Part shown: positions 7,866 to 52,490 of the stretch, piece after piece
Numbering within the stretch: the stretch's first letter is position 1
Layout of the letters: each line of letters starts with the position of its first letter
Assembly (NCBI RefSeq): GCF_003855395.1
Contig: NZ_CP034015.1
Span: forward strand, 3,668,001 to 3,732,000
Source: Shewanella livingstonensis
GTDB taxonomy: Bacteria > Pseudomonadota > Gammaproteobacteria > Enterobacterales > Shewanellaceae
Length of the DNA stretch: 64,000 nucleotides
Reading direction: 5' to 3'
Program-made: the position numbers and the translations under genes
The notes under the pieces: model-generated
Told to the model about the DNA's origin: nothing
Seen by the model: the letters and a program-made list of their open reading frames with translations, nothing else
Databases searched by the model: none

Positions 7866-8269
7866 CTATACATTTTCCTTATCCATCCTTAACAAGCACA
7901 TTAGCATCCAAGCTGTCTCTGTTTAGTGTAGTAGAACCAGACTAACACTATGATTTTTTCATCTTTATACCGTAACTCATTCTATATATAAACAGCATAA
8001 AATTCATCTGAAATTTCGCAATGGCTGTTCGATAGAAATGGTATCTCAAGCTAACCCAATACAAAGATTCATAGTTTACTCATATAACCACTGCACCAAA
8101 ACAACATCAAGCAAGATCACAGTTACTTAAAAAATGCGGTATTTGTAATAAATTGACCTAATGATTATGACTTATTCGACGTTAACGAGCCCCACGTCAC
8201 ATAATCGCAGCCGCGTTATTGATAGCTTTAATACAGAGAAAATTCAATTTTATATAAAGGACAATTCAT
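7866..8269. other. Intergenic region between divergent c-di-GMP gene and yiaY
   Basis: 404 bases of AT-rich sequence between divergent genes. It must hold both promoters, but I see no convincing -35/-10 pair, operator palindrome or small gene. A good Shine-Dalgarno (AAAGGA) lies just before the yiaY ATG. Confidence 0.5.
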
Positions 8270-35995: not shown

Positions 35996-36330
35996 TCGGT
36001 AATCCTTCACTAAAGAGATAGGCCATATTTTAGCCGAAACGATTACACCAAGTAATAACCACTAAGGATGGCTTGAGCAATTGAACATACCGTGATTGTT
36101 ATCTTAAAGTAAACCCCGTTTATTATGCTATTTTCATCCGTATAACGTAACAGTAAAAACGCATTTTAATGAGCAATGACGGTACACTTAATTAACAACC
36201 TGTCGTAAGAAAAACAACCGTTTTACAGCAAGCAGAAGACATTACTCATATACCACTGTATGGTATTATTTCAGGCGATTAAAATGGCTGGTCATTGGAC
36301 CCATCGTTCATACAATGTAAGGATTACTCA

Positions 36331-37380
36331 TTGCTTACTTCCATTAAAAAACACTTAAAAAGTAACGGTAACCTCAAACACGCTAGGGTCATTGCACTAT
36401 TTTCATTGGTGGGAATGGCCATCACTGGCGCTATGGGAATACTCAGCTTGTGGGGTAACAGCAGTACCTTAACAATAATCCTCTTTATTGCCAGCGCAAT
36501 CTACCTAAGCGCCTTTTTTTTATCAAAAAAATTCAGCTTAAAAGTCAGTGGGACTATCATCATTTATTCATTATATTTATTAATGTTTTATTTGGTCTTT
36601 AGCGGTGGAGTCGCACAAACTGGTCCATTATGGGTTTTCATTGTAGCCCCCGTTTCCGTGTATGTTTTAGGCTTACGCCAAGGCTTAATTAATCTGGCAG
36701 TATTTTTGAGTGTCGTCAGTATCATCATGTTTTTACCGCAACATGTTATTGAGCATGCATCGTACACTCCAGAATTTAAGTTGCGACTCATATTGTCATT
36801 TTTAACCATGACATTTTTATCTGCATTATACGAATACTCTAGAATGCAGTCTTACAAAAATGTCGTCGCGTTGAGTAGCAAATACCAACAATTAGCCATG
36901 TCCGATCCACTCACAAAACTCGCTAACAGACGTAATGCATCAGCAGTATTGCAACAAGAAAAGTCACGCGTAAATCGAAATAACGAGCCGCTTTCGGTAC
37001 TATTGTGCGATCTAGACCACTTTAAAGCGGTTAACGACAAATACGGTCATAACGCAGGTGATATGGTGTTAATGGAGTTGTCGCAAATATTTACTGATCA
37101 TGTCAGACAACAAGACTGTGTTGCCCGTTGGGGCGGCGAAGAGTTTTTATTTATATTGCCGCAAACATCCGCCGAGCAAGCCAACATTATCGCTGAAAAA
37201 ATTCGTGCCAGTGTGCAACAACACAGCATCATCTTTCACAAACATCAAATCAAAATCACCATTAGTATCGGCATAGCTCAACTCAGTGAAGATCAAAGTA
37301 TCGACGAACTGATCAACCACGCCGACAAAAACTTGTACCAGGCTAAAACCTTAGGCAGAAATCGGGTTCATCCCGGTTAA
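36331..37380 (+). CDS. Membrane diguanylate cyclase (6TM-GGDEF)
   Basis: Inner-membrane protein of 349 residues: about six hydrophobic helices (residues 20-185), a short linker and a GGDEF domain (MSDPLTKLANRRNA, active loop RWGGEEFLFILP near residue 268). It should synthesise c-di-GMP. No in-frame ATG opens the gene. I choose the TTG at 36331 because AAGGA lies eight bases before it; another TTG at 36295 has no ribosome site. It is divergent from the FIST operon and is the fourth intact GGDEF protein in this window. No RXXD inhibitory site is obvious before the GGEEF. Confidence 0.88.
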   Translation: MLTSIKKHLKSNGNLKHARVIALFSLVGMAITGAMGILSLWGNSSTLTIILFIASAIYLSAFFLSKKFSLKVSGTIIIYSLYLLMFYLVFSGGVAQTGPLWVFIVAPVSVYVLGLRQGLINLAVFLSVVSIIMFLPQHVIEHASYTPEFKLRLILSFLTMTFLSALYEYSRMQSYKNVVALSSKYQQLAMSDPLTKLANRRNASAVLQQEKSRVNRNNEPLSVLLCDLDHFKAVNDKYGHNAGDMVLMELSQIFTDHVRQQDCVARWGGEEFLFILPQTSAEQANIIAEKIRASVQQHSIIFHKHQIKITISIGIAQLSEDQSIDELINHADKNLYQAKTLGRNRVHPG

Positions 37381-37785
37381 ATAACATTTCTCAATCACAC
37401 TACCCCTTGATTAATCAATAATAGCCTACTGCTCTAGGGGCTGACCAAAATTATCATTCCAGTACCCTGTATTTGTCAGCACTAGCAGCCTAGCTATGCT
37501 TTATTTTTATCGCGACAAAATCGTTAAACACCGATGCATGACACTTAACCTAAAGTCCATCCCACTCAAAAATGACTCTGTAAAGTCAGTATCTAACTCA
37601 AAATTTGATAAAAACAATTGTGGTTTTTATTAATAATTACGTCTGTCGCAATCGATTCAACACCAAGGTATTTTCTTTGTTCATTCCTATCTGTACATCC
37701 TTTAAGGCTGATTATTTGACATAAAACTCATTAATTAAATAAGGATTGTTATTTGATAATTAAATTACGCATAAGGGTTCGTTAA
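37381..37785. other. Intergenic region with ECF-type promoter A
   Basis: 405 bases without a gene. The right half, from about 37586, matches the region before 39445 for roughly 90 bases, centred on the promoter motif at 37619. The left half shows nothing I can assign. Confidence 0.6.
37619..37646 (+). promoter_or_regulatory. Candidate ECF-sigma promoter A (TGTGG-N16-CGTCTGT)
   Basis: TGTGG followed after 16 bases by CGTCTGT, with a T-rich stretch right after the first box. The CGTC core is typical of ECF -10 elements. The motif is repeated with the same spacing at 39314 and 45321 and in degenerate form at 47676. It lies 140 bases before the 443-residue lipoprotein gene. Confidence 0.7.
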
Positions 37786-39117
37786 ATGACAAATATCTTT
37801 AAATTTTCTACTGTAGTCGCTGCAATTTTTATAGCCCAAGGTTGTACTCAAGGCCCTGATATTGGCAAGATAGATGATTCATCAATGCGTTATTTAGGCT
37901 CGAGTAAAGTCGATATTTATACACTCGATTCATCGGCAATCGAGGATTGGGCTGAAGCTAAAGCAGACTTCAAACGAAGAATGGAAGAAGTTACGGGCAC
38001 GAAGGATTTTAGTGATGCTGAAGCTGTCGTTGAAGCCGTTGACGATTTAATTGATGAAATGGATCTTGTTGATTTAGTCGATGACGTAAAGCCTTTTAAC
38101 CTAGTAGAGGCTAAAGCAAAACTGAAAGCGACCTATCAAGCACAACTTGATAACGAATTAGCACAGTTAGCAGCGAGTAAAGCTGAAAAAGATGCATTTC
38201 TTCCCACTTACAACGAATCTCTTGCTGCCTTTGAAAAAGGGAGATCTGATATTGAGTCATTTAAATCTCAAAGAGATGCGTTAAGTGATGCGTTTCAATT
38301 GGCAAAAACAGAAGCCATTAAAAGTCTGGCTGATGTAGGAGTTGATTCGGCTGGAAACATAGGTAAAAGATTAAATATTGATAGATTTTATAATACGTAT
38401 TCGTATAATTTTACCGAGGCATTAAAAGATAAAACGTGTCGCGAGTTAGACAGGAATTCAGGAAATAAACCAAATTCTATTTATTATTCAGATGCCCGTA
38501 TAACAGACGATAAATCAGAATTAGTTTGCACAAAAATTGCTTTCCCTTCTAGTTATGGGTCTGATAATACGGAAAACCAGAAACTTAAAGAACCACAAAT
38601 TAACGCAATTAAACTTGCCTTAAATAAAGCTCAATCGTATTTGCGAGACGCCAATCAGTTAATAAAACAATCCAACTCGTATTACCAAGACCATCCTCAG
38701 ATAGCTGATCTACATAACAGATACCAACGTAATGACAGAAGAATGCTAGAAAGCATTGAAACCAAAGTTAAATGGGCTCAAGACGCTGTGGATAGAGTGA
38801 TAATTCCTAGTGATGAAAAAATAGCTACCGAAGTTGCTTTTGAACATATGCGTACTTTGAATTTGTATTCGGAATTTCACTACAATAATATTCTTTTAAA
38901 TCAGCTAGATTATGTGGCTACTGTTAGCGCGGATGGGCGATTTAAGCTTGATAATAGTGAAAAATTTAATTTGTTAATTGCACGTCCAGAGAGAAAAATC
39001 AATCAAAAAGCCGCTTATAAAATAATTCGACTTGCTGAATTTGATGATAAAGCTTTAGTCACCATAGGGCTGAATGATATTTTGACATCAAAAGAATTCC
39101 AAACAATTACACTATAA
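37786..39117 (+). CDS. Coiled-coil lipoprotein, unknown function, 443 aa
   Basis: Lipoprotein with a signal peptide and lipobox ending at Cys20 (FIAQGC). No Asp follows the Cys, which points to the outer membrane. Most of the mature protein is predicted helical and charged, with coiled-coil-like stretches (about 105-185: EAKAKLKATYQAQLDNELAQ; also 285-350). Two further cysteines (CRELD, LVCTK) could form a disulfide. No known family is recognised. It is preceded by the ECF-type promoter A, and I see nothing obvious downstream in the transcript. By context it is part of the kinase/sigma regulon. It is somewhat more AT-rich than the flanking core genes. Confidence 0.8.
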   Translation: MTNIFKFSTVVAAIFIAQGCTQGPDIGKIDDSSMRYLGSSKVDIYTLDSSAIEDWAEAKADFKRRMEEVTGTKDFSDAEAVVEAVDDLIDEMDLVDLVDDVKPFNLVEAKAKLKATYQAQLDNELAQLAASKAEKDAFLPTYNESLAAFEKGRSDIESFKSQRDALSDAFQLAKTEAIKSLADVGVDSAGNIGKRLNIDRFYNTYSYNFTEALKDKTCRELDRNSGNKPNSIYYSDARITDDKSELVCTKIAFPSSYGSDNTENQKLKEPQINAIKLALNKAQSYLRDANQLIKQSNSYYQDHPQIADLHNRYQRNDRRMLESIETKVKWAQDAVDRVIIPSDEKIATEVAFEHMRTLNLYSEFHYNNILLNQLDYVATVSADGRFKLDNSEKFNLLIARPERKINQKAAYKIIRLAEFDDKALVTIGLNDILTSKEFQTITL

Positions 39118-39444
39118 ACTTGACCGATGGAGCCTGAAAATAATTTACAGGCTCCCAAAAACTAAAACGGTAATCCCCTAATATAAATCACTTATAGGAC
39201 TTTTTTAGTCAAAATGAGTTTGGCCACGCCGCAACTGTAATTCTTCAAATACTGTCGAACATCGCTCACTTTGCAATAAAATCAGTATCTAATTCAACAT
39301 TTTATAAAAAAATTGTGGTTTTTTTTTAAAACTACGTCTGTAGCAAACTGCACCTTTTCTAGGTATTTTTATCTGCTCGCATCGTCTGACATCTGCTTTT
39401 ACACCCTCTAGATGATTTATATTTGAGTTCGCAAAGGAAAATTT
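39118..39444. other. Intergenic region with ECF-type promoter B
   Basis: 327 bases without a gene. From about 39282 it parallels the region upstream of 37786, including TCAGTATCTAA, the promoter motif and a GGTATTTT block 27 bases after the CGTCTG start. The rest shows nothing assignable. Confidence 0.6.
39314..39341 (+). promoter_or_regulatory. Candidate ECF-sigma promoter B (TGTGG-N16-CGTCTGT)
   Basis: Same two boxes and spacing as promoter A, with a run of nine T after the first box. It lies 104 bases before the ATG of the 112-residue lipoprotein gene. Confidence 0.72.
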
Positions 39445-39783
39445 ATGCTGAAAAAATCTTTTATCGTTGCAGGTTTATCACTTTTACTCGCCGCTTGCGG
39501 GGGACATGGCTATGAAGGTCAATATGAGTCAAGCATCGAGGCTACCGGATTAGGCAGCTTAAATAGCATGATGCCTAAAACAACAATGTACATCGGCACT
39601 GATTACATTGAATCAAATGGTCAAAAAATAGAAGTCGAAAAAATCTACGTCAAAGAACAAGACGACAGAAAATTTTTAATCATGCAAACACAAGAAGGCG
39701 ATCAAGCCTACATCATCGATAAAGACGGTTCATTACTGATTAAATCAGGTCTTGCGACCATAAAATTTACCAAAGTTGATTAA
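39445..39783 (+). CDS. Small lipoprotein, unknown function, 112 aa
   Basis: Small exported lipoprotein: signal peptide MLKKSFIVAGLSLLLAAC with the lipobox Cys at residue 18 followed by GG, so outer-membrane sorting is likely. The mature part (about 94 residues) looks beta-rich (TTMYIGTDYIE, KFLIMQTQEGDQAYIID, ATIKFTKVD), like a small barrel or lipocalin-like fold, but I recognise no family. AAAGGAA precedes the ATG. It is the first gene of a unit under promoter B; a metalloprotease-like lipoprotein follows 34 bases downstream. It may be a partner or inhibitor of that enzyme, which is inference. Confidence 0.8.
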   Translation: MLKKSFIVAGLSLLLAACGGHGYEGQYESSIEATGLGSLNSMMPKTTMYIGTDYIESNGQKIEVEKIYVKEQDDRKFLIMQTQEGDQAYIIDKDGSLLIKSGLATIKFTKVD

Positions 39784-39817
39784 TGACACTCTGACCATGA
39801 AGAAAGTTGAAAATAAT

Positions 39818-41140
39818 ATGAAAAAATATACATCGTTAATCAGTATCGCATTATTATCTGCAGGATTAACTGCATGTGGTGGCAGCGACAGTAATGAAAA
39901 CACCGACGATTCAGTCAATACACCTAGCAATGGCAACGGCTCATCTTCTTCTGAGCAAAGTGTCTATATGGCCCCAACAGGTGAACTTGCTCAAAAAATG
40001 CTGGCGATAACCCCATCTGCATCAGATAACAGCGTAGAAGCTCAATGTTCGACAACAAGCAGTGTCTATGAAACGACTGACTTGTATGTAGGTTTCAGCT
40101 CAAGCGCCAAAAGTAATGGGAATGACGCTGATTTAATTTATGCAGCACAACTTACTCAAGTCGCCTTAAATGAACTGGTAACAGCGACGGGCTTAAATAA
40201 AAGCAATGACCTAAATTTGGATGGACAAAATAAGTGGGTAATTTGTCTCGATAATAATAAAACGGGTATTGGAACAAGCTCAATTGCCAGTATGACATTT
40301 AGCCCATTCGAGCTTGACGCAGATAGCTTCAAACTAGCAAAACATGAATTATTCCATGTTGTTCAATCCGAACTGCTTGAACAAAGTACTGTATATCTTC
40401 ACTTGCCTCGTTGGTTCCAAGAAGGCAGTGCAGAGTATTTTGCTTCAATGGATTCAAGTAATGTAAGCCGTTCATTATTAATGAACTTTACAAGCGATCT
40501 GGCAAGCAATTCCTCATTACAAGGGTTGCAATCAGCTTATGGCATTAACACCTATAATCACCAACAAGATATCTTAGAAGCCTATCCACAATACGATAAT
40601 AAACTATACTCAATCTATAAAACCTCGGTTAACTACTTAGTAGACAAAGGGTTAACTGATCAAGCACTTATCTCACTCATTAGAAATTCGTATCAAGCAG
40701 GACAAGATCCTCAAACAATGCCACAGTTTCACAGTGAAATCGCAATGTTGCAAGCAACAGGCGCATTCACACTGCCTTCTGGCTATGACTACACAGACCT
40801 ATTAACAACAGAAGGATACAGTGAACTAATCCTAAATGACTGGCTGAATACAGATCAATATTCAGCATCATTTACATCTGTTTCAGCGACAGTCACCATC
40901 GCCAGATTGTTTCTTATACCAACACTGGATCAAGAAAATGAGTATGAAGTTACGGTAAATACAGATCAGAGCGGCTATAGCTATGCCGTTGGCAGCATTC
41001 CAGATGGCGACTACCAGATTTACGCCATCGACACCGCTGATGAAAATGCTTATGGTCCAATGACACAATCCGTTGTTAATGGTGAATTAGGTGATATTGA
41101 TTTCACCGGTGTTAACGTTTGTGAAACCTGTGATGACTGA
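39818..41140 (+). CDS. HExxH metalloprotease-like lipoprotein 1
   Basis: Lipoprotein of 440 residues; signal and lipobox MKKYTSLISIALLSAGLTAC, then a low-complexity linker. The zinc signature HELFHVVQ (near residue 182) is followed about 27 residues later by LPRWFQEGSAEYFAS, whose Glu would be the third ligand, as in gluzincin (MA clan) peptidases. I place the start at 39818; an upstream in-frame start would bury the signal peptide. The C-terminal 120 residues look like a beta-rich domain ending in a CETCDD tail. It follows the small lipoprotein gene on the promoter-B transcript and ends at a strong terminator. The substrate is unknown. Confidence 0.8.
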   Translation: MKKYTSLISIALLSAGLTACGGSDSNENTDDSVNTPSNGNGSSSSEQSVYMAPTGELAQKMLAITPSASDNSVEAQCSTTSSVYETTDLYVGFSSSAKSNGNDADLIYAAQLTQVALNELVTATGLNKSNDLNLDGQNKWVICLDNNKTGIGTSSIASMTFSPFELDADSFKLAKHELFHVVQSELLEQSTVYLHLPRWFQEGSAEYFASMDSSNVSRSLLMNFTSDLASNSSLQGLQSAYGINTYNHQQDILEAYPQYDNKLYSIYKTSVNYLVDKGLTDQALISLIRNSYQAGQDPQTMPQFHSEIAMLQATGAFTLPSGYDYTDLLTTEGYSELILNDWLNTDQYSASFTSVSATVTIARLFLIPTLDQENEYEVTVNTDQSGYSYAVGSIPDGDYQIYAIDTADENAYGPMTQSVVNGELGDIDFTGVNVCETCDD

Positions 41141-41171
41141 TCTTTATTCGTTAGTTAAATGAGTTCAATAA

Positions 41172-41199
41172 AAAAACCAGACAGCTTGTCTGGTTTTTT
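41172..41199 (+). terminator. Rho-independent terminator of the promoter-B unit
   Basis: Stem AAACCAGACA / TGTCTGGTTT with a three-base loop and a T-tract. It lies about 30 bases after the metalloprotease-like gene. Confidence 0.88.
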
Positions 41200-41220
41200 A
41201 TTGGTGGTTAAACGTATCTT

Positions 41221-41485
41221 ATACCATTCAGCGTTAGTAAGTGATCTCTCAGCGAGAATTTAAAAGGACTTAAACAAGGCGAATGACTGAATGAATAGTT
41301 GTTCTCTTTCGAAGTCATGCAACGCAGTATAAGCCCTTTTAAAACTCGCCTGAAAGGAATGCCCCAGCGGCTTTTGCTCTGCGTTCTCGCTATTTGAAAG
41401 GGAACAACCATTACTACATAGCGACACCTTAATCAAAAACCGCTGGACGCATTCTGAGTGGTCACATATTAATTCGGAATGGTAT
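41221..41485. mobile_element. 265-bp fold-back repeat element
   Basis: Starts ATACCATTC and ends with the complement GAATGGTAT. It has a second, imperfect internal inverted pair, GTTGTTCTCTTTCGAA (about 41305) against TTTGAAAGGGAACAAC (about 41393). No gene is inside. It lies between convergent units (terminator and sigma gene stop). It is unrelated to the GGGCCTG element. Only one copy is in the window, so mobility is inferred from its ends. Confidence 0.55.
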
Positions 41486-41507
41486 TAAATCACTATCACA
41501 ACACCGT

Positions 41508-42116
41508 TTATGCAAACTCTCTAGACGGTTGAACAGACGGCTGCATGCGTTGCTTTAACCATGCTTTGGCAAACCGTAAATCATTTTCTACCGTTCTTAA
41601 AGACACTCCGAGTAACCTGGCAATTTCTTTGTTACTCTTTTGAGCAAAATAGCGTAAATCCAGTGCCTCTGCCTGCCTTGCATAGTGTTTAGAAAAGCCG
41701 TCCATTTCGAGGTACAAAATGATGCTATTAAAGTCATCCTCCAAAGATTGGCCTTTTTGATTAATCGCAATGGTTGATGACACTTTACTCATCCCCCTCG
41801 CCTTGCTCTTTACCGTCTTACGATAATGATCAATAAATAGGTTTCTCACCGTTGAATTTAAATAACTGTAAAACTCACGTAATGTTTCAACAGGTAAAGT
41901 TGACTCGGCGACCAACAACTTTTCATAGCAATCATGCGTTAAATCCGTAACAGACAAAGATAAAAATGCAGTATTTACATCCTCAGGCAGATTGTCATAA
42001 TGAATATTGGCATACTCTTTTATTTTAATATAAGCCAATTCCATCAATACCTTCGTTGGCTCAGGCTCGCCATTCTGCCAAGCTTTAATTAAACACAACA
42101 CTTCACTTTCTGTCAT
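41508..42116 (-). CDS. ECF-type sigma factor paired with Ser/Thr kinase
   Basis: Extracytoplasmic-function sigma factor of 202 residues. Region 2 (LSVTDLTHDCYEKLL, then LNSTVRNLFIDHYRK) and region 4 (DLRYFAQKSNKEIARLLGVS then RTVENDLRFAKAWLKQRM) are both present. Region 2.2 has SVTDLTHD where most ECF factors have an acidic D-x-E-D stretch; the threonine (residue 57 from this start) falls on an acidic position. In Vibrio parahaemolyticus EcfP a Thr at this kind of position is phosphorylated by PknT to switch the sigma on. I use the ATG at 42116 (GGAG before it); a TTG two codons earlier is possible. It follows the kinase gene by 23 bases; no anti-sigma gene is present. Confidence 0.85.
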   Translation of the reverse strand: MTESEVLCLIKAWQNGEPEPTKVLMELAYIKIKEYANIHYDNLPEDVNTAFLSLSVTDLTHDCYEKLLVAESTLPVETLREFYSYLNSTVRNLFIDHYRKTVKSKARGMSKVSSTIAINQKGQSLEDDFNSIILYLEMDGFSKHYARQAEALDLRYFAQKSNKEIARLLGVSLRTVENDLRFAKAWLKQRMQPSVQPSREFA

Positions 42117-42139
42117 TAACAAGCTCCTTTGAATCTATA

Positions 42140-44992
42140 TTAACTGCTGCGTTTCGCTAAACCCACAGACCGTTCAGCAACCACTACGTCATCCACCAGC
42201 TGCTGGTATTGCTTATACCAATTACTATTACTCTGAATATTTCGGTTATCTAACAGTGTTTTAATCTGGGTAATGTTGCGCTTTGAAAACGCTATATTGC
42301 GGTAATTCAGGGCGATGTTGGCTTCTTTTATCAATACATCAAGACGATTAGCAGAATTGCGACGCTCTTTTGCTCCCCACGTAAACTGAGGTAATGCAGC
42401 TAACACAATGTCAGAGTCCGCTTCTGTGCTTACGCTTTCACTTAGTAAATAGGCAAGTTCAAGTTGTTTCTTATTGTAAAAATAAACATCTCGCTTTGCT
42501 GTTGTAGTAAGCACATCTTGCGATTGCAAATAATCAATACGCGTTAGTGCTAAGTCCTGGCTTGTGACTAAGTTCAGTAAATAAGTATTGAATGCGGGTG
42601 TAAATAGCGCTGTTGTTCGCTCTGAAATATTGTCTTTGCCACTCACCAGCCCATCAACATCATTTAAAATTTGAGTCACAATCGCGGGCAAGTTTTCAGG
42701 GGCTTTCCCAATAATAGACAAATACTCATCTATAATTTTTGCTGCTAACGTCACCGATGCAATGTCCCGCTTATCAGTACCAAGGGTTAAATACACATTA
42801 AACAACCGATTAGCATATTGTTGATATTGTTCAAAATCCCCTATGTTGTATAACGTGAACAACAGTACCTCAAGCGAATTCAGATATAAACCGGGGTTAG
42901 TCGCCAAATATGTTTCCGCTAACGTGACACCGTCTACCGCCGCTTGATAACTTAATTGCGGCGCATCATAAGCATAAAAACCAGCAATCATGCGATAAAA
43001 GTAAATATTATTAGGATGTTGTTCACCGACAATTTTTTTGTGGTTATTCAGCGCCTGGTTCATTACACGCTGTCCTTCTTCAAATCTGTCTAATTCTATG
43101 TACGCCCGGCCTAATACCAACTGCTTTTTTAACACTTCAATTTGGTTGTTCAAACCAGTATAAATCTCGACCGATTGATTAAGGGCAACAGCGGCTTCTT
43201 CAATAAGTGGTTTATATTGAGAGTCAAAAATGAGTTCATCGGTTTGCTCAAAGTTAAACTCTATCCCAATGGGTATTTGATTCTCTAGCGCACCACCAAG
43301 TGCCCCAAGCACATTACCTTTAAGCTCATCGGTTAATTCACTCCAATAATGGGCTTTGATATTTCTCAGTAAATTAATGTGTTGTAACCCCATATCGCTG
43401 GGCATACTTTGATATAAATGGTATTTCTGGCCATTAAGGTAATTGTGATAAAAAATGGCTTGCAATGGTGTATCAGGTAACCCCTCAACATCCGAAAATG
43501 TTAAATGGTCAAGTAACACACTTGTATTAGGGTCAATCAAACTAAATTCATTTGAATAGTTGTACAATTGCACTAATTGTCCACCTGCTTTAAAAGCCGT
43601 ATCAGCGTCGTTTAATAATGCAACGTTATTTATCACTTCTTGATACAGAACTTTAGCTTGTGCAATATTACCAATAGACTCATAACTATCAGCCAGAGTC
43701 AGTTTGATTTTCGCAATAGAATCGGCATTAAGGACTTTATCATCTTTGACGATTTTTTTAGCATTATCTAATAAATCTACCGCGAGTAACTCTTTACCAT
43801 TCGATTTTTTTAAGTCTGCCATTTCCAATAGCTCAGATAACTTTTTTACCACCAAGTCAGACTGATTCTTAGCCACTTTAAGGTCTTCAAACTGTATATA
43901 TAAATTCACAGTTAGATAAGTTATCGCGGCTAAAAAACTCACCGCTGTCAATGTTGGGATAGGGTATCGCTTAAAAATAAACTTTGTTAATTTAAACCTA
44001 TAACTGCCCGAATACGCAGTTACATTTTGATGACTTAAATAGCGTTCAATATCATATTTAAGATCTAAAACAGAAAGATAACGTAACGAACTATCAAGGC
44101 TGGATGCTTTATCAGCAATCGCATGTAACTCCACACTTTTGCCATATTCATCTGAGCAAAGCAGTAAGTCTTTTAAAATTAACCCAAGTGAGTAAATATC
44201 ACTTGTTGTATTGGCAAGTTCGCCGAGTTTAACTTCTGGGCTGGCATAAATGGGGGTTAACGCCTTAACATACGTTTTGTATATCTGTTGGCTTGGTTCG
44301 TCACTATTACAAAAGATACGCGCAATACCAAAATCCAATACCTTTATTTGATTGCTATTATCGACCAGAATATTGGCGGGTTTAAGATCTGCATGAACAA
44401 TTTGATTTTGGTGCGCATGATGAATGGCGTCACATAAGCTACAAAAAACGCTTAACTTATCTTTTAATCGAACGCTGTTATCGGCCCATAACGTTGAAAT
44501 TGGCTTTCCATCAACGAGCTCCATCACAATGTAAGAATAACCTTCAGCGGAGATCCCCGCGTCAAAAACCTTACCAATATTAGGATGATTGAGCTTTGCC
44601 ATAAAGCTGGCTTCACGAATTAAGGCTTCTTTACCTATAAATGACTCTAATTGATGATTAATAATTTTAACAGCCACTTTCTGTTCAAATTTCTCATCAA
44701 TTCTATCGGCTAAATAAACGGCTCCCATGCCACCTTGGCCAATGAGTTCCACCAATTTAAATGCCCCCACAAAACAGCCTGTTAACGCGGTCACATGGTT
44801 AGATAAGCTGTCAAACTGGTCTGCCATTAATCTTGACCAATCATGTTCAGCAAGCTCGTTGTCATTGGTAATAAGCACATTAATTTCATCAATTAATGCT
44901 TGTTCACCTTCACACTGCTGATGAATAAATGCACGTTGTTGTGTAGCAGGAAGTGAGATTGCTTGAATAAAAATATCGTAAAGTGAAGTCAC
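42140..44992 (-). CDS. Transmembrane Ser/Thr protein kinase with large C-terminal sensor region
   Basis: 950-residue PASTA-less bacterial Ser/Thr kinase. After about 65 N-terminal residues comes a complete kinase domain (about 70-330): glycine loop GQGGMGAVY, VAVKI lysine, catalytic loop HADLKPANIL, DFG in LDFGIA and YASPEV. The catalytic loop has HAD instead of HRD, making it a non-RD kinase. One membrane helix follows (about 350-370, PTLTAVSFLAAITYLTVNLY), then nearly 580 helical residues resembling TPR repeats, presumably in the periplasm. The start is GTG at 44992. With the downstream sigma gene it forms a kinase/sigma operon like PknT-EcfP. Confidence 0.9.
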   Translation of the reverse strand: MTSLYDIFIQAISLPATQQRAFIHQQCEGEQALIDEINVLITNDNELAEHDWSRLMADQFDSLSNHVTALTGCFVGAFKLVELIGQGGMGAVYLADRIDEKFEQKVAVKIINHQLESFIGKEALIREASFMAKLNHPNIGKVFDAGISAEGYSYIVMELVDGKPISTLWADNSVRLKDKLSVFCSLCDAIHHAHQNQIVHADLKPANILVDNSNQIKVLDFGIARIFCNSDEPSQQIYKTYVKALTPIYASPEVKLGELANTTSDIYSLGLILKDLLLCSDEYGKSVELHAIADKASSLDSSLRYLSVLDLKYDIERYLSHQNVTAYSGSYRFKLTKFIFKRYPIPTLTAVSFLAAITYLTVNLYIQFEDLKVAKNQSDLVVKKLSELLEMADLKKSNGKELLAVDLLDNAKKIVKDDKVLNADSIAKIKLTLADSYESIGNIAQAKVLYQEVINNVALLNDADTAFKAGGQLVQLYNYSNEFSLIDPNTSVLLDHLTFSDVEGLPDTPLQAIFYHNYLNGQKYHLYQSMPSDMGLQHINLLRNIKAHYWSELTDELKGNVLGALGGALENQIPIGIEFNFEQTDELIFDSQYKPLIEEAAVALNQSVEIYTGLNNQIEVLKKQLVLGRAYIELDRFEEGQRVMNQALNNHKKIVGEQHPNNIYFYRMIAGFYAYDAPQLSYQAAVDGVTLAETYLATNPGLYLNSLEVLLFTLYNIGDFEQYQQYANRLFNVYLTLGTDKRDIASVTLAAKIIDEYLSIIGKAPENLPAIVTQILNDVDGLVSGKDNISERTTALFTPAFNTYLLNLVTSQDLALTRIDYLQSQDVLTTTAKRDVYFYNKKQLELAYLLSESVSTEADSDIVLAALPQFTWGAKERRNSANRLDVLIKEANIALNYRNIAFSKRNITQIKTLLDNRNIQSNSNWYKQYQQLVDDVVVAERSVGLAKRSS

Positions 44993-45002
44993 GTTCCCGC
45001 CT

Positions 45003-45245
45003 GTGAATGAGAGTTATATCCGTATAAAGATGCCTAAAATGCTCAACAACACGCAAATAATGAAACCATATAAACACCAAAGCTATGTTATTAATCTTTC
45101 ACAAAATCAACATGTCGTTATTAGTGCTGCACCGTTAACGTTTACGCAGCAACATAGGGTAATTGACTCCTTGATCAAGCGTATCGCAGAGTCATCACAA
45201 AGTATGACACCGTGTAATTTGATGACTATATCCTTAACTGTTTAA
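45003..45245 (+). CDS. Possible small protein, divergent from the kinase gene
   Basis: Open frame of 80 codons from a GTG, with in-frame ATGs at 45030, 45039 and 45060. The part after 45060 (MKPYKHQSYVINLSQNQHVV) looks protein-like but no clear ribosome site precedes any start. It lies in the 514-base gap between the kinase gene and promoter C. It may be a real small gene or chance. Confidence 0.28.
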   Translation: MNESYIRIKMPKMLNNTQIMKPYKHQSYVINLSQNQHVVISAAPLTFTQQHRVIDSLIKRIAESSQSMTPCNLMTISLTV

Positions 45246-45320
45246 AAGTCTATAACAGACTGATTTAAATGCTTAAAATTTGACCTGAAACGCTATAATA
45301 TAAAAAATATTCGATTCTGA

Positions 45321-45348
45321 TGTGGTTTTTTTTAAAAAATCCGTCTGT
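45321..45348 (+). promoter_or_regulatory. Candidate ECF-sigma promoter C (TGTGG-N16-CGTCTGT)
   Basis: Both boxes and the 16-base spacer match promoters A and B. A GGTTATTTT block follows 26 bases after the CGTCTG start, close to its place in A and B. It lies about 205 bases before the second metalloprotease-like gene. Confidence 0.72.
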
Positions 45349-45554
45349 AGCCATTCTCTGTAAATTGGGTTATTTTTTTATAGGGTGTTTGCGCATTCAT
45401 GTCCCCTTTACTGCTCATTGCGAGTAATTAATTGGGTACTAAACACTGAGGCTGAAAACAACGAAGCATTGTTGTTTTTACATTAGCTTTTATCACCACA
45501 CATTTAATGTGTGGATGGATATTAATGGCGTTATTGAGATTCTGTGACATTAAA

Positions 45555-46697
45555 ATGAAAAAACATTCTTATACATTATTAGCATCATTGGTGTTATCGG
45601 CTTGTGGTGGCGGTGGTGCTGACTCAGAAAAAGAAACCGATGTCCCATCAGATACAACACCATCTAAAACCTATGTGTCTGGTAATACGGTGCAATCTGG
45701 TAGTGCTGGCTATATAGAATATCCAACAGAAGATGTAGGTCAGGGTTATTACTGTAATGGTAGTTCTGACAAGTATTTTGAAAGCGAATTTGTACGAGTT
45801 TATGCTAACAGCGCAGTTGGCAATAATGACTTAATGGCTGTTGCAACAATTGTTCAGAACAACATGTCTTTTTCCTACGGGAAAATGAACTTTACCACGG
45901 CATCCCTAAAAGAATTTATGCCGCAATACGCACCAACTATCGCAAATCGTTTTTTACAAACAAACGAATACAATGATGAACTTGCGTATAACTATGTCTA
46001 TACCGGCATTCATAAAGATCTTGATTGGAAGTCAATGACCGCTAGCGATGTTATCTATGGCATTCCAGATCATTATCAGTCTCTTGACACTCAGGGCGCT
46101 ATTGACACGGCTTTAATTCTAACCGAAAAATTTAGCGAACTATCAGGAACGGAAGTTGAAAAACGCAGCGACAAAGTTATTGTCTGTCTTGCTGGACACA
46201 TGAACAAAAGTCGTTTTGCTGAAGGGACATTTCGAGGGCTAAACTTCGCTGAGCCAGAAACGGATAGTCGTGTATTAGAATCAGTATACACCAAGCACGA
46301 GCTTATTCACCATGTTCAAATGCAACACTATCGAGTCACTGATGGTTCTGTTATAGGCATATACAACCTTCCGTACTGGCTTGTAGAAGGTCAGGCAGTG
46401 TATCTTTCAGGCCAATCAATAGCTAAACGAAGCGAAGTATCAAATACATCAATTGATGATATGAACAACGCATCAGATAAAAACTTGTACTATGAAGAAT
46501 ATGGGTTGGCTTATAGCTATCTTCACCTAAATAACGATATTGATACCATAAACAAGTTATATTCAAATACAGCAAGCGGTATCACTAGTTTTGAGTCAGC
46601 GTTTGATGCGCTTGGATTAAAGAATCATTATGGGCAAGTAATGACTTACAGTTCATTTAAATCAAATTATCAAACATGGGTAGCCGACTGGAAATAA
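45555..46697 (+). CDS. HExxH metalloprotease-like lipoprotein 2
   Basis: Lipoprotein of 380 residues with signal and lipobox MKKHSYTLLASLVLSAC followed by GGGG. The zinc motif is HELIHHVQ, near residue 248, and LPYWLVEGQAVYLSG lies about 20 residues beyond, giving the third-ligand Glu as in lipoprotein 1. The catalytic segments thus align with those of 39818-41140 though the rest is diverged, so the two look like distant paralogues. I use the ATG at 45555 because it starts a clean signal peptide; an upstream frame-open ATG would not. It is under promoter C and appears to be a single-gene unit. Confidence 0.8.
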   Translation: MKKHSYTLLASLVLSACGGGGADSEKETDVPSDTTPSKTYVSGNTVQSGSAGYIEYPTEDVGQGYYCNGSSDKYFESEFVRVYANSAVGNNDLMAVATIVQNNMSFSYGKMNFTTASLKEFMPQYAPTIANRFLQTNEYNDELAYNYVYTGIHKDLDWKSMTASDVIYGIPDHYQSLDTQGAIDTALILTEKFSELSGTEVEKRSDKVIVCLAGHMNKSRFAEGTFRGLNFAEPETDSRVLESVYTKHELIHHVQMQHYRVTDGSVIGIYNLPYWLVEGQAVYLSGQSIAKRSEVSNTSIDDMNNASDKNLYYEEYGLAYSYLHLNNDIDTINKLYSNTASGITSFESAFDALGLKNHYGQVMTYSSFKSNYQTWVADWK

Positions 46698-46825
46698 TAT
46701 AAATTAGGGGCAGCGATAAGTTACCCTAATTTCAAATTAAACGTCTATCTCCTAGTAACACATTTATCTTGCACAATAACATTTTTCTCATTGCAACAAT
46801 TTTAACAAATGTATAAAGGGTAATC

Positions 46826-47491
46826 ATGAGTAGTCATAGAATAGTAAAAAATAAATCATTTGGCCTATACTTTCTTTCATTTATGGTCCTATCTCCAATT
46901 TGGATTTTTTTAGGATTAATAATTGGTGGTTTTTTAGGTTATCAATACAATAGCACCGCGTTTTTCTTTGGGTTGATATGCTCTCCTATAGCATTAAGTT
47001 ACTTTCATACATCTAGGAAAATAAATAAACTCAACGAGTCTGCTGACTTACTTGAGAGTAATGTAAAAAAACTGCTTGAGAATACCGACTACTATTACAC
47101 TTCCGCAGGTAGTGCTATGGGTGTTGATGTTGTAAATAACATTATTGTCGTTGTTGCTACTGATAGAAAGTTAAAATTATTATCACCTATAACTTTTGAC
47201 GCAAAAATCATAAAGGATTACAAAGCCTACTCTCCTGGGCATACCTTAACAGATGTCATTGGCCATGCTAGTACAATGGATAAACACAGTGTTTTAACAA
47301 AAAACATTAACTCTCAGGTTAATTCTAGTCTTGAAACTGGACTTTATTTTAGTTTAGACAATATTTTAATGCCAAAAGTGTTTGCGAAAATGGAGTATAA
47401 TGAAGCAGAGAAGTGGCTTTTGATTATAGAGAAAATATTAAACCAAACAATTGAATCTCAACCGTCACCAATGTTTTATCCGCCACAATAA
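46826..47491 (+). CDS. Membrane-anchored hypothetical protein, 221 aa
   Basis: Protein with two adjacent membrane helices near the N-terminus (about 13-35 and 44-60) and a cytoplasmic or periplasmic soluble part of about 160 residues with a beta-rich pattern (VDVVNNIIVVVATDRKLKLL) and a helical end (YNEAEKWLLIIEKILNQ). I do not recognise the family with confidence. AAGGG precedes the ATG. It lies between two units with ECF-type promoters but has no convincing copy of the motif itself; a lone CGTCTAT upstream lacks the partner box. It may simply be a passenger. Confidence 0.7.
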   Translation: MSSHRIVKNKSFGLYFLSFMVLSPIWIFLGLIIGGFLGYQYNSTAFFFGLICSPIALSYFHTSRKINKLNESADLLESNVKKLLENTDYYYTSAGSAMGVDVVNNIIVVVATDRKLKLLSPITFDAKIIKDYKAYSPGHTLTDVIGHASTMDKHSVLTKNINSQVNSSLETGLYFSLDNILMPKVFAKMEYNEAEKWLLIIEKILNQTIESQPSPMFYPPQ

Positions 47492-47675
47492 TATGATGAA
47501 TTAATTATAATACCTGGCAGGTAAAGTTGGCAGTTAATTATTACCAAGTATTTTGTTAAATAGGTGGCAATAATGGACAGGGTAACCGCATGAGTGTGCG
47601 TTTTTTGTTCATAATGAATAGTATCAATACAGAACCACTTCCAATCATTCATGAAATGATAACGTTCTGAACAAA

Positions 47676-47703
47676 TGTAGTTTTAAAAATATACTGAATC
47701 TGT
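47676..47703 (+). promoter_or_regulatory. Candidate ECF-sigma promoter D, degenerate (TGTAG-N16-AATCTGT)
   Basis: Aligns base for base in spacing with promoters A-C but has TGTAG for TGTGG and AATCTGT for CGTCTGT. It lies about 190 bases before the lipoprotein-subtilisin operon. The loss of CG in the second box may weaken it. Confidence 0.5.
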
Positions 47704-47756
47704 TCGTAAAACGTTCGCGATCTCGCCCTGCAATAATGGATTATGCAATTAGATTT

Positions 47757-47798
47757 AAATAACAAATAACAAATAACAAATAACAAATAACAAATAAC
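47757..47798. repeat. Heptanucleotide tandem repeat AAATAAC x6 in a gene leader
   Basis: Six perfect AAATAAC units between promoter D and the lipoprotein ATG at 47893. It would be transcribed into the leader if promoter D is used. Confidence 0.92.
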
Positions 47799-47892
47799 AT
47801 AGTAATTAATTAATGCTGAATTATTTAAAAGAATCAGTATTAATCAATTATATATGTCCAGTTTAATCAACTCTGTTAATCGAGATTATATA

Positions 47893-48843
47893 ATGAAAAA
47901 GAACATCGCTCTGTTTATTTATACTGCGGTTATAACCGTTTTTCTTTCTGCTTGTGGTGGGGGCAGTGACAGCGATGAAAATGATAGCTCCTCGGTAACA
48001 CCAACGCCACCAGTAACCACACAGCCATCTCAACCAATGACAGTTAGTACGTCTTTGATTAGCACCTCAGTAGATGAGCTAGGCTCAGTTTCTGGCTCAT
48101 TCTCAGCAGGCAATGTTAATGGCACACTGTCGGCAACAAGTAGCTATTCAGGCAAAGGAAAAGTCAAAATTGATGTTAGTGGTAATTCAGTTAATGTGAC
48201 CTTTACTGCCCCTGAAATGAACAACGATCTCATTGAGCAGTTTGTCGTTACCGCTAAAGACAGCAAAACTTCACATACCGTTACGTTCACGGCCAATGTT
48301 AAAAACACATCAGCCGTCAGTAAGGTTTCGTTTTTAACCGCCTACGCATCATCAGTGAGCCAAAAATCATTATTTGCTGACATGACGAATATTTACCGCT
48401 TTTACAGTAGTGCTGGGGTGTATGTTGGCGAAACAACAGCATCCGATGCAGATGATTATCAAGATGCCTTTAGTGACTCGCAAACAGTGGCATACAGCAC
48501 CTTAGCCAAAAACAGTTCTTACTCTTCAGCAGCAATCACCAAAATGCTTGCAGACTACAAGACTGGCGCACTGAGTGAGACCGATATTGATTCAACTATA
48601 AGCGGCTTGCAAACCTACATTCTTTCAATCAACACCACTTTGGCGACAAAAATCAGTGATATTGCAGCGCTTTCAGACAAGCTACCGGTGTTTACTCCGG
48701 GTGAGTTAAGTATGACCTTGACTGGCATGTCATCTTTAATTGGTAATCCATCCATGGGCTCATATGTGAACGGCCAGTGGGTTTTTAATAGCGAATTTGC
48801 GTTAATCGGCAAAATCATTTCATCAACTTGTGCCGCAGAATAA
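47893..48843 (+). CDS. Ig-like lipoprotein paired with subtilisin-like protease
   Basis: 316-residue lipoprotein with signal and lipobox MKKNIALFIYTAVITVFLSAC then GGGSD. After a Thr/Pro/Ser-rich linker comes a beta-rich domain (about 45-140, with VSTSLISTSVDELGSVSG, VDVSG-like strands and FTAPEMNND) resembling a cadherin/Ig-like fold. The rest is mainly helical (about 145-290). No family is recognised. It is the first gene of an operon with the secreted subtilisin-like protease, 22 bases apart, so a chaperone, inhibitor or anchor role for that protease is plausible but unproven. I choose the ATG at 47893 as the start of the signal peptide. Confidence 0.75.
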   Translation: MKKNIALFIYTAVITVFLSACGGGSDSDENDSSSVTPTPPVTTQPSQPMTVSTSLISTSVDELGSVSGSFSAGNVNGTLSATSSYSGKGKVKIDVSGNSVNVTFTAPEMNNDLIEQFVVTAKDSKTSHTVTFTANVKNTSAVSKVSFLTAYASSVSQKSLFADMTNIYRFYSSAGVYVGETTASDADDYQDAFSDSQTVAYSTLAKNSSYSSAAITKMLADYKTGALSETDIDSTISGLQTYILSINTTLATKISDIAALSDKLPVFTPGELSMTLTGMSSLIGNPSMGSYVNGQWVFNSEFALIGKIISSTCAAE

Positions 48844-48865
48844 CGCTGTATTACCGGAGAATATC

Positions 48866-50371
48866 ATGAAAAAATTAACTACCTTATCAATGGCAATACT
48901 CGCGTCTTTCGTAGCAACAGCAGCAATGTCTGCGCCAAAAGAAACGCAGATTACTGAACGTTACTTTACGCCACAGCTTGCGCCCCAGCCTACTGGTAAA
49001 CAGTCTGTGTCATCTGATGGCTCATTGCCTAACGATGCTGAGTTTCAACGCCTACAGTATTCTTACATGCACTCTTCATTAACTGAGGCAACGGTCGGCA
49101 ATTACTTTATTGGCTCGTGGCTAAAATCACAAACCAAGCAGACAAAAAAAATCCGTGTTGGAGTTGTTGATGTGGGATTTGCTCCTCATCCTGATATCAA
49201 CTACGCGAATGAAAGTGCCGACTTTTTTGAAAATGACAATGATGCATACAGTGAAAAGATAATGCGTGAGTCATCCTCATGCACTCCTCACGGAACGTAT
49301 GTCGCTTCAATCATTGCAGCAAAAAGCAATAATGGCGTGGGTATCTTTGGTGCTGGCAATAACGTTGAAGTCGTCCCAGCACGAGTGGCTGCCTGTGGCC
49401 AAGGAAGCAACTTTGAAACAAGTGACGGCATAGCTTGGCTGGCTGGAAGAAGTTTTGCTGATGAAGGTATCGCCGATATCAGTCATTCTGTTGATGTTAT
49501 TAATGTTAGTCGTGGTGGTTATGGTGGATGTCCTATCGATATTCAGGAAGCAGTTGATTATGCTATGTCAAAAGGCATTACCGTTGTCGCTTCAGCAGGA
49601 AATGGTAACGTCGAAACAGAACTTTCGTGGCCGGCAGGCTGTAAGGGTGTTATTACTGTTTCTGCTACTGATATAAACGACAACCAGGCAAGCTTTACAA
49701 ATTATGGGCATGCAAATGACATTACTTCTCGCGGAGTTGATGTTGCCCTTTATGGCTTAGATGATCCATCTTTGCCTAATAAGACATACATTGGATCAGG
49801 AACATCATTTTCTGGCCCTCTAGTCTCATCAGCGATTGCCAACGTACTTAGTGTTACTGACGGGCTAACGCCAGCAGAAGTGAAATACCTTCTTTTATCA
49901 ACATCTACTGAGTTTAGTGACACCACAACGTGTACTGTTGATAGCTGTGGTGAAGGTCATCTTAACAATGACAAACTTGTTGAAGCGGGTGAACTTTATC
50001 AGGCGGGCAATTTAAGCTACATCAAGCAGGCACTTCCTTATGGTAATGCATGTGATAAACAGCTACTGATTGAAACATTTGGCGAGTCACTTCCGTTATG
50101 CGGAATGCTTGAATTAACACTGAATGCGCTTGGTACAGAAAGAGATCATGTAACCTATAACGTCTATCGTGCACCAAAAGGCACCGCTATTGATGTGAAT
50201 GACAGTGCCACTGAGTTATTCATCAGTGACACGAAAAAGACAACACAGCTAGTACCTGATTTCGATATCGAATCATTCGACTATGGATTTACAGTGTGCT
50301 TCTCAGATGATTGTTCTGATGATGTTATTCACATCACAACATACGAAGAAAAAGACGCTAGCTGCGAATAA
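48866..50371 (+). CDS. Secreted subtilisin-like (S8) serine protease
   Basis: 501-residue exported S8 protease. Signal peptide MKKLTTLSMAILASFVATAA ends near AMSA; GGAG lies before the ATG. The triad is visible in order: Asp in VGVVDVGFAPHPDI (near residue 110), His in CTPHGTYVASIIAA (near 147), Ser in GSGTSFSGPLVSS (near 314). The oxyanion Asn is in VASAGNGN. About 110 residues follow the catalytic domain, with several cysteines, and look like a beta-rich accessory domain. The pre-catalytic part is only about 75 residues. It is the second gene of the promoter-D unit and ends at a strong terminator. Confidence 0.92.
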   Translation: MKKLTTLSMAILASFVATAAMSAPKETQITERYFTPQLAPQPTGKQSVSSDGSLPNDAEFQRLQYSYMHSSLTEATVGNYFIGSWLKSQTKQTKKIRVGVVDVGFAPHPDINYANESADFFENDNDAYSEKIMRESSSCTPHGTYVASIIAAKSNNGVGIFGAGNNVEVVPARVAACGQGSNFETSDGIAWLAGRSFADEGIADISHSVDVINVSRGGYGGCPIDIQEAVDYAMSKGITVVASAGNGNVETELSWPAGCKGVITVSATDINDNQASFTNYGHANDITSRGVDVALYGLDDPSLPNKTYIGSGTSFSGPLVSSAIANVLSVTDGLTPAEVKYLLLSTSTEFSDTTTCTVDSCGEGHLNNDKLVEAGELYQAGNLSYIKQALPYGNACDKQLLIETFGESLPLCGMLELTLNALGTERDHVTYNVYRAPKGTAIDVNDSATELFISDTKKTTQLVPDFDIESFDYGFTVCFSDDCSDDVIHITTYEEKDASCE

Positions 50372-50406
50372 ACAATAACGATTTCATGATAAAAAACCGA
50401 TAAAAA

Positions 50407-50440
50407 AAACGGTCATCGTATTCACGATGACCGTTTTTTT
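50407..50440 (+). terminator. Rho-independent terminator of the lipoprotein-subtilisin unit
   Basis: Stem AAACGGTCATCGT / ACGATGACCGTTT with a four-base loop and a seven-T tail. It may also serve the convergent minus-strand gene. Confidence 0.9.
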
Positions 50441-50461
50441 GTATTGAAACTACCTAGTAGA

Positions 50462-52249: not shown

Positions 52250-52450
52250 TCAATAATCCTTTATTTTACGCAATGCGCTTTGTTGTCCGTACAAACATCA
52301 AGACGTTAAATTAAGTGATGGTGCGACTAGGTTAGTTAGTGGCTTATTTAGCGGTAGGCTTGCTATTAATAAATCAATCTTCGTTAACGCCGTGAGTAAA
52401 CGTTGGCATTAATGTCACGTTTGCCCAGCAGTACACAAACTGTATAAATG

Positions 52451-52487
52451 ACACCGCCTGTATCGCTAGGCTCTACAGGCGGTGTTT
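52451..52487 (+). terminator. Strong hairpin after the vWA gene, U-tract on plus strand
   Basis: Perfect 12-base arms ACACCGCCTGTA / TACAGGCGGTGT around an 11-base loop, then TTTTTA on the plus strand. It lies immediately behind the vWA gene stop, which is on the minus strand, where the tail is only moderately U-rich. It may stop plus-strand antisense transcription or act in both directions. Confidence 0.6.
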
Positions 52488-52490
52488 TTA

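What the first reader, a model, noticed from the sequence alone, without database searches (positions are those of the whole stretch)
37619..50371. A self-contained Ser/Thr-kinase/ECF-sigma regulon of envelope proteases
Four transcription units around a kinase-sigma operon share a two-box promoter, TGTGG-N16-CGTCTGT, at 37619, 39314, 45321 and (degenerate) 47676, all with identical spacing. CGTC is a typical ECF -10 core. The units encode five lipoproteins and one secreted S8 protease; two of the lipoproteins carry HExxH plus a downstream Glu motif. All four are absent from the other intergenic regions I scanned by eye. I infer that the kinase senses an envelope signal, activates the sigma, and induces three proteases with partner lipoproteins. 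The system as a whole is not one I recognise.
Basis: partly seen in the sequence, partly recalled or inferred. Interest (0 to 1): 0.88.

Follow-up and report, generated by a model that had tools for sequence, protein, structure and literature searches.

The report
Kinase-switched sigma factor controlling envelope proteases
A bacterial membrane kinase and its partner sigma factor sit among lipoprotein and protease genes that share a promoter sequence also found beside the same sigma factor in distant relatives, so this is probably a small self-contained switch of a recently discovered kind, with a new set of targets.

Summary
The core observation holds. TGTGG-N16-CGTCTGT occurs exactly three times in the 4.84-Mb genome (37619, 39314, 45321), each before a lipoprotein unit beside the kinase-sigma operon. 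The fourth, degenerate site (47676) is chance-level.

Nine genomes found here carry a close sigma. In eight, TGTGG-N16-CGT lies before lipoprotein genes near it (G282 has none). Ten such regions give 10 of 10, the best dyad tested; 100 shuffles reached at most 7. Sites also precede a phosphatase-sigma operon in two relatives. One site about 16 kb from a sigma led to another HExxH lipoprotein.

The sigma has an invariant Thr where ordinary ECF sigmas have DAED, as in kinase-activated ECF43 sigmas (EcfP, EcfK). The kinase resembles PknS in layout. Best reading: a transmembrane Ser/Thr kinase phosphorylates the sigma, which switches on lipoproteins, two with a gluzincin metalloprotease motif. The S8 protease is tied to the system only through relatives. 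Phosphorylation, promoter use and proteolysis are inferred. Signal and purpose are unknown; I favour defence against envelope-active peptides or predators.

New variant of a known kind: known type of switch, apparently new promoter and regulon.

The parts
37619..37646 (+). promoter site 1, TGTGG-N16-CGTCTGT (-35 and -10 boxes of the sigma, inferred)
   Evidence: exact match, 1 of 3 in the genome; conserved in relatives
37786..39117 (+). lipoprotein, 443 aa, target of site 1; no Pfam match
   Evidence: lipobox; relatives at 51-95%
39314..39341 (+). promoter site 2
   Evidence: exact match
39445..39783 (+). small lipoprotein, 112 aa, first gene behind site 2
   Evidence: lipobox; 36% identical homolog in the L052 target operon
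39776..41140 (+). HExxH lipoprotein, second gene behind site 2 (likely ATG 39818)
   Evidence: HELFH plus downstream Glu; related to 45507
41508..42122 (-). ECF sigma factor with Thr at the DAED position (Thr59 of the ORF, Thr57 from the likely ATG 42116)
   Evidence: PF07638 67.5 bits, cut-off 21.1; Thr invariant in 32 of 32
42140..44992 (-). transmembrane Ser/Thr kinase, TM about 348-366, TPR-like region beyond it
   Evidence: Pkinase 132.9 bits, TPR matches below cut-off; TM; catalytic residues invariant in 7 of 7 aligned
45321..45348 (+). promoter site 3
   Evidence: exact match
45507..46697 (+). HExxH lipoprotein, predicted gluzincin fold, target of site 3 (likely ATG 45555)
46826..47491 (+). 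predicted membrane protein, 221 aa, between two units; membership unknown
47854..48843 (+). lipoprotein partner of the S8 protease; membership by relatives only
   Evidence: lipobox; homologs beside S8 in L019 and L155
48830..50371 (+). S8 serine protease with signal-like start; membership by relatives only
   Evidence: PF00082 149.3 bits, cut-off 21.8; D114, H154, S326 invariant in 3 of 3

Best explanation
A self-contained envelope-sensing switch. The transmembrane Ser/Thr kinase senses something outside the inner membrane with its TPR-like region and phosphorylates the neighbouring ECF sigma at the Thr that replaces the acidic DAED position, which lets the sigma bind RNA polymerase. The holoenzyme reads TGTGGTTTTT-N11-CGTC promoters, found exactly in this genome only at the locus, and induces outer-membrane lipoproteins, two with a gluzincin metalloprotease motif. 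The S8 protease and its partner lipoprotein belong to the regulon in two relatives and may still belong here. Shown by sequence: the sites, their conservation, the gene content, the Thr, the kinase layout. Inferred: phosphorylation, promoter use, proteolysis, sorting to the outer membrane, and purpose. For purpose I commit to inducible defence against envelope-active peptides, bacteriocins or predators (about 0.35). The confidence below is for the regulatory circuit.
For: Three exact sites in 4.84 Mb, all at the locus. TGTGG-N16-CGT in 10 of 10 target upstream regions, top dyad, shuffles at most 7; spacer 16 gives 16 hits over nine loci, other spacers 0-5. Over 394 genomes, four relatives with the close sigma have exactly one extended site each, beside the sigma, against 49 matches in 388 genomes without it. 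Loci of close sigmas other than the window: 12 short-motif hits in 140 kb, 11 of them upstream of genes; loci of distant sigmas: 3 in 129 kb. A site 16 kb from a sigma stands before an HExxH lipoprotein operon. Thr at the DAED position in 32 of 32 and 38 of 38 rows; A, M, E in three ordinary ECFs of the genome. Kinase beside the sigma, with one TM helix and TPR-like matches, best solved match 9eed_A.
Against: No expression or biochemical data. G282 has the kinase-sigma pair but no site. The upstream regions were chosen partly after the motif had been seen, and three come from one genome. Asp follows the Thr, so the sigma keeps a negative charge there (as EcfK does). The window's own kinase-sigma operon has no site. 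No dedicated phosphatase was found in this genome. With one mismatch there is no excess of sites over the control in any of 8 genomes. The sigma falls short of the TIGR02999 cut-off (104.7 against 126.15 bits), and its profile has no match among solved structures.
Confidence: 0.8

Rival explanations
1. The circuit is as stated, but its job is nutrient scavenging: surface proteases digest external protein and a TonB receptor takes up the products.
For: A TonB-dependent receptor lies beside the kinase in L019 and L155; two protease classes are among the targets.
Against: TonB receptors were seen in 2 of the 9 loci only, and not in the stretch 35500-52500 of the window. Several targets are not proteases.
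Confidence: 0.2
2. The circuit is as stated, but its job is quality control of the outer membrane, like an extra RpoE-type stress response.
For: Targets are lipoproteins and proteases; weakly BamE-like and thioredoxin-like (both below cut-off) proteins stand behind sites in L021 and L019.
Against: Close sigma in only 1 of 152 genomes of the family, so the function is accessory; no general chaperone or LPS gene was seen behind the sites examined.
Confidence: 0.2
3. The TGTGG-N16-CGT sites are not promoters of this sigma but operators of another regulator, or remnants of gene duplication.
For: Sites 37619 and 39314 share about 35 further bases upstream, which suggests duplication. G282 has the sigma without a site.
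Against: Site 45321 and the sites in other families lack that flank but keep both boxes and the spacer. The layout is that of an ECF promoter (typical CGTC -10, recalled), and kinase and sigma are the regulators common to the loci.
Confidence: 0.08
4. Kinase and sigma are neighbours, but the sigma is controlled by its level or an unseen anti-sigma, not by phosphorylation.
For: Asp60 keeps one negative charge; T51A of EcfK still works in X. citri (PMC13147305 section 8).
Against: Invariant Thr, adjacent kinase in all nine loci with the kinase broken in L018 and possibly L155, a phosphatase gene beside the sigma in three. Linker Ser/Thr sites as in EcfK could also serve.
Confidence: 0.12

Closest known systems
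PknS-EcfK of Xanthomonas citri (ECF43)
   Same: Kinase with N-terminal extension, kinase domain, TM helix and extracytoplasmic TPRs next to an ECF sigma with Thr at the DAED position followed by an acidic residue (QATE there, SVTD here). Best solved-structure match of the window kinase is 9eed_A, 364 aa; the PknS paper contains that code twice and solved PknS 1-364, so I take it to be PknS.
   Different: EcfK controls a type VI secretion system; here the targets are lipoproteins and proteases around the sigma. No EcfK sequence was compared directly.
PknT-EcfP of Vibrio parahaemolyticus (ECF43)
   Same: Kinase-activated sigma without an anti-sigma; Thr at the same motif position (STTA) (passages).
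   Different: EcfP confers polymyxin resistance; its motif has no acidic residue. Its promoter and regulon were not available to me (original paper not held as far as searched).
RpoE-type envelope stress sigmas
   Same: ECF sigma, envelope targets including proteases (recalled).
   Different: No anti-sigma gene seen beside the sigma; kinase instead; DAED motif altered.
Gluzincin metallopeptidases (M30 lugdulysin, M9 collagenase, M1)
   Different: 8-15% identity in the rows shown, no Pfam match, lipid-anchored; substrate unknown.

Membership tests
ECF43 sigma factors | Ser/Thr kinase gene beside the sigma gene | tested here: met
   (nine loci; kinase ORF split by a transposase in L018 and in two ORFs in L155)
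ECF43 sigma factors | DAED motif replaced, with Thr at the phospho position | tested here: met
   Thr in 32 of 32 and 38 of 38 rows; Asp retained next to it, as in 15.8% of ECF43 and in EcfK
ECF43 sigma factors | placement in the ECF43 group by its model or tree | not tested
   no ECF43 model or named reference sequence at hand; own tree shows one clade of nine (97/89) apart from two other Thr-bearing groups, with long-branch warnings
ECF43 sigma factors | phosphorylation of that Thr by the kinase switches the sigma on | not testable with these tools
   needs biochemistry
TIGR02999 ECF sigma subfamily | score over the curated cut-off | tested here: not met
   104.7 bits against 126.15
PknS-type receptor kinase | active kinase domain, one TM helix, extracytoplasmic TPRs | tested here: met
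   Pkinase over cut-off, TPR matches under cut-off; TM; catalytic residues kept, HAD in place of HRD
MA(E) gluzincin peptidases | HExxH plus downstream Glu | tested here: met
   invariant in 10 of 10 aligned
MA(E) gluzincin peptidases | peptidase fold and assignment to a family such as M30 or M9 | tested here: inconclusive
MA(E) gluzincin peptidases | zinc-dependent proteolysis | not testable with these tools
   needs assay
S8 subtilases | domain over cut-off with Asp/His/Ser triad | tested here: met
   149.3 bits, cut-off 21.8; D114, H154, S326 invariant in 3 of 3

The most novel reading that the evidence does not exclude
This clade is a reversible phospho-sigma circuit with built-in feedback. 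In three relatives a calcineurin-like phosphatase gene directly precedes the sigma, in two of them behind the sigma's own promoter motif. In four relatives the induced lipoprotein carries the same C-terminal beta domain as the extracytoplasmic end of four of the clade's kinases (for example 33% over 210 residues), so the product could compete for the kinase's ligand or dock on it and set the response. In the window, protease lipoproteins would play that part by destroying the ligand.
Probability: 0.22. Interest if true: 0.75.

Novelty: new variant of a known kind. Interest (0 to 1): 0.58.

Why it matters
Activation of a sigma factor by direct kinase phosphorylation has been worked out in very few systems (those named). 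Here a compact locus offers kinase, sigma, a fixed-spacing promoter and targets together, repeated with variations in nine genomes, so it could be rebuilt in a laboratory host and tested as a whole. It predicts the promoter specificity of a phospho-activated sigma clade and ties it to uncharacterised lipoprotein proteases.

Tried and rejected
Fourth promoter at 47676: rejected. Wider regulon in the own genome: degenerate patterns gave no more matches than the reversed control; I looked at one near-miss only (L156, TGTGGATTTTT-N10-CGTC) and did not assign it to a gene. Homology of the 37786 lipoprotein to the third lipoprotein of L052: nothing beyond the signal peptide region. Small lipoprotein 39445 against the beta-domain lipoproteins: signal peptide only. 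Predicted fold of the L054 beta-domain lipoprotein: low confidence, no match at E 0.001 or better. Site before the window's kinase-sigma operon: none. Cognate phosphatase in the window's genome: only a partial match, 35% over about 68 residues of a 273-aa frame. Motif near the 37786 homologs of G064, which lacks the close sigma: none. Solved structures related to the sigma profile: none at E 0.001. Literature: no ECF43 promoter motif and no matching regulon seen in the listings and abstracts or in the passages read; the ECF reclassification paper is not held and subscription papers are mostly missing, so absence from print is not shown.
Full report
WHAT IS THERE. The window lies in a 4,839,879-base single-contig genome. 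The closest sigma relative is named Shewanella frigidimarina (89%), so the genus is probably Shewanella; I did not confirm the name otherwise. The kinase (42140-44992) and the sigma (41508-42122) lie on the minus strand, flanked on the plus strand by lipoprotein genes at 37786, 39445, 39776, 45507 and 47854 and an S8 protease at 48830. A 221-residue predicted membrane protein without a Pfam match (46826-47491) sits between two units.

THE MOTIF IN THIS GENOME. TGTGG-N16-CGTCTGT is exact at three places in the window, and these are the only exact matches in the genome; the reversed control pattern has none. Looser matches carry no signal: up to 2 mismatches, 6 in the window against 2.9 expected, reached by 8 of 100 shuffles; up to 3 mismatches of an extended pattern, 71 in the genome against 119 for the control. 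The site at 47676 has 3 mismatches, two in the CGT core, and scores 5 of 8 core letters by hand, a score that at least three other positions in that upstream region reach. I do not count it. A weak terminator-like stem (5 pairs, 47587-47600) lies before the 47854 unit, so read-through from site 3 is neither shown nor excluded.

THE MOTIF IN RELATIVES. Close sigmas (E below 1e-40) were found in 1 of 152 genomes of the window's family, 6 of 394 sampled from its order including its own, 4 of 395 sampled from a second family and 3 of 24 of a third: nine different genomes after overlap (G000, G448, G875, G523, G753, G269, G281, G240, G282). Eight of nine have TGTGG-N16-CGT upstream of lipoprotein genes beside or near the sigma; G282 does not. 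I scored 330-base stretches around the starts of ten target genes (three in the window, one in each of seven relatives). TGTGG-N16-CGT is in 10 of 10 and is the top dyad among all 5-mer/3-mer pairs with spacers 10-22; in 100 dinucleotide shuffles the best dyad reached 7 once, 6 seven times, 5 in 61 and 4 in 31. Over the nine loci, spacer 16 gives 16 hits and the other spacers from 8 to 24 give 0 to 5. Cautions: the regions were chosen partly after the motif had been seen, three come from one genome, and the L155 site lacks the T tract.

INDEPENDENT CHECKS. TGTGGTTTTT-N11-CGT[AC] over 394 genomes of the order: 51 have a match, 56 matches in all. The own genome has three; G448, G269, G281 and G240 have exactly one each, next to the sigma; G282 has none. 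The other 49 matches are spread over 388 genomes (0.13 each) and I did not examine them. With one mismatch none of 8 genomes shows an excess over the reversed control. In 31 loci of distant sigmas (129 kb) the short motif occurs 3 times; in 8 loci of close sigmas other than the window (140 kb) 12 times, 11 of them upstream of genes by my reading. In G523 I looked at all four exact extended sites and one of six one-mismatch sites: two exact sites lie before lipoproteins at the locus, one before a protoglobin-GGDEF gene, one inside an ORF (L139); the one-mismatch site, chosen because it lies about 16 kb from the sigma, stands before a small lipoprotein followed by an HExxH lipoprotein 38% identical to that of L052.

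TARGETS. HExxH lipoproteins related to 45507 stand behind the site in L052, L019 and L168. The small lipoprotein 39445 has a homolog in the L052 run of genes (36%). The pair 47854 plus S8 has homologs in L019, as second and third genes behind the site, and in L155, directly behind a site. That is the only reason I keep the S8 unit. In the three Psychromonas-type genomes and G523 the target beside the sigma is a different lipoprotein. Protein searches returned 7 relatives of 45507 (one the window's own) and 4 of 37786; the first missed the L052 and L019 relatives and the second scored a capped list, so the families may be larger than that.

SENSOR-LIKE TARGETS AND PHOSPHATASE. The C-terminal 200 residues of that other lipoprotein are homologous to the C-terminal extracytoplasmic part of the kinases of L019, L018, L054 and L020 (L018 lipoprotein against L019 kinase: 33% over 210 residues, E 8e-27). 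No such match was seen for the window's kinase. A calcineurin-like phosphatase gene (PF00149) directly precedes the sigma in G448, G875 and G523, and in the first two a site lies 68 bases from its start. The other six genomes show only short partial matches.

THE SWITCH. Ordinary ECF sigmas use an acidic DAED motif to bind RNA polymerase; ECF43 members replace it and carry a Thr that the neighbouring kinase phosphorylates (PMC8999054 passages; PMC13147305 section 8, first part). Here the motif is SVTD. The Thr is invariant in 32 of 32 close relatives and in 38 of 38 rows of a wider set, while three ordinary ECFs of the same genome have A, M or E there. Asp follows the Thr, like the Glu in EcfK's QATE. 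In that wider set a kinase motif was seen within the short flanks of only 7 of 29 distant loci (flanks 1.5 kb, one motif tested). The kinase keeps the Lys, Asp, Asn and DFG residues in the 7 intact kinases aligned; its catalytic loop reads HAD (5) or HGD (2), not HRD. It has one TM helix and sub-threshold TPR matches beyond it, the layout described for PknS (passages). The nine sigmas form one clade (97/89) apart from two other Thr-bearing groups; the tree carries long-branch warnings. Without ECF43 references I cannot say whether it is a subgroup or a sister group.

PURPOSE. Not shown. Rare occurrence and the known roles of the two best-studied relatives, polymyxin resistance and resistance to amoebae, make an inducible defence the likeliest use. 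Nutrient scavenging and envelope quality control remain open.

VERDICT. A real, conserved regulon around a phospho-switched ECF sigma; three sites, not four; a known type of switch with an apparently new promoter and target set.

Noticed in passing
window 37585-37618 and 39282-39313: The sequences just upstream of sites 1 and 2 are nearly identical over about 35 bases; site 3 does not share them. Recent duplication or an upstream element.
   Followed up: no
window 34865-37380: A FIST-domain gene and a MASE6-GGDEF diguanylate cyclase gene lie just before the locus.
   Followed up: no
window 36000-48999: G+C is 0.34-0.40 across the locus against about 0.40-0.43 in the stretch after it, in keeping with an accessory region.
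   Followed up: no
L018:6578-9965: The kinase gene of the Psychromonas arctica locus is in two pieces around an IS1595-type transposase ORF at 7637-8554.
   Followed up: partly
L152:8861-10168 and L153:9256-9807 (G064): Homologs of the 37786 lipoprotein lie in two very similar regions upstream of a TraG_N-domain gene, one copy cut short beside a transposase ORF; no close sigma and no motif there.
   Followed up: partly
L132:1501-2730 (genome of L021): A full site TGTGG-N16-CGTCTGT stands before a protoglobin-GGDEF gene, which may tie the sigma to cyclic-di-GMP in that genome.
   Followed up: partly
L019:6355-9192 and L155:6066-8900: TonB-dependent receptor genes lie beside the kinase in two relatives.
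   Followed up: no
L019:1162-3568: A site on the minus strand (3568) precedes a thioredoxin-like protein (below cut-off) and a 460-aa protein without a Pfam match.
   Followed up: partly
window 42140-44992: The kinase's catalytic loop reads HAD where most Hanks-type kinases have HRD (HRD recalled); 5 of 7 aligned relatives have HAD, 2 HGD.
   Followed up: no
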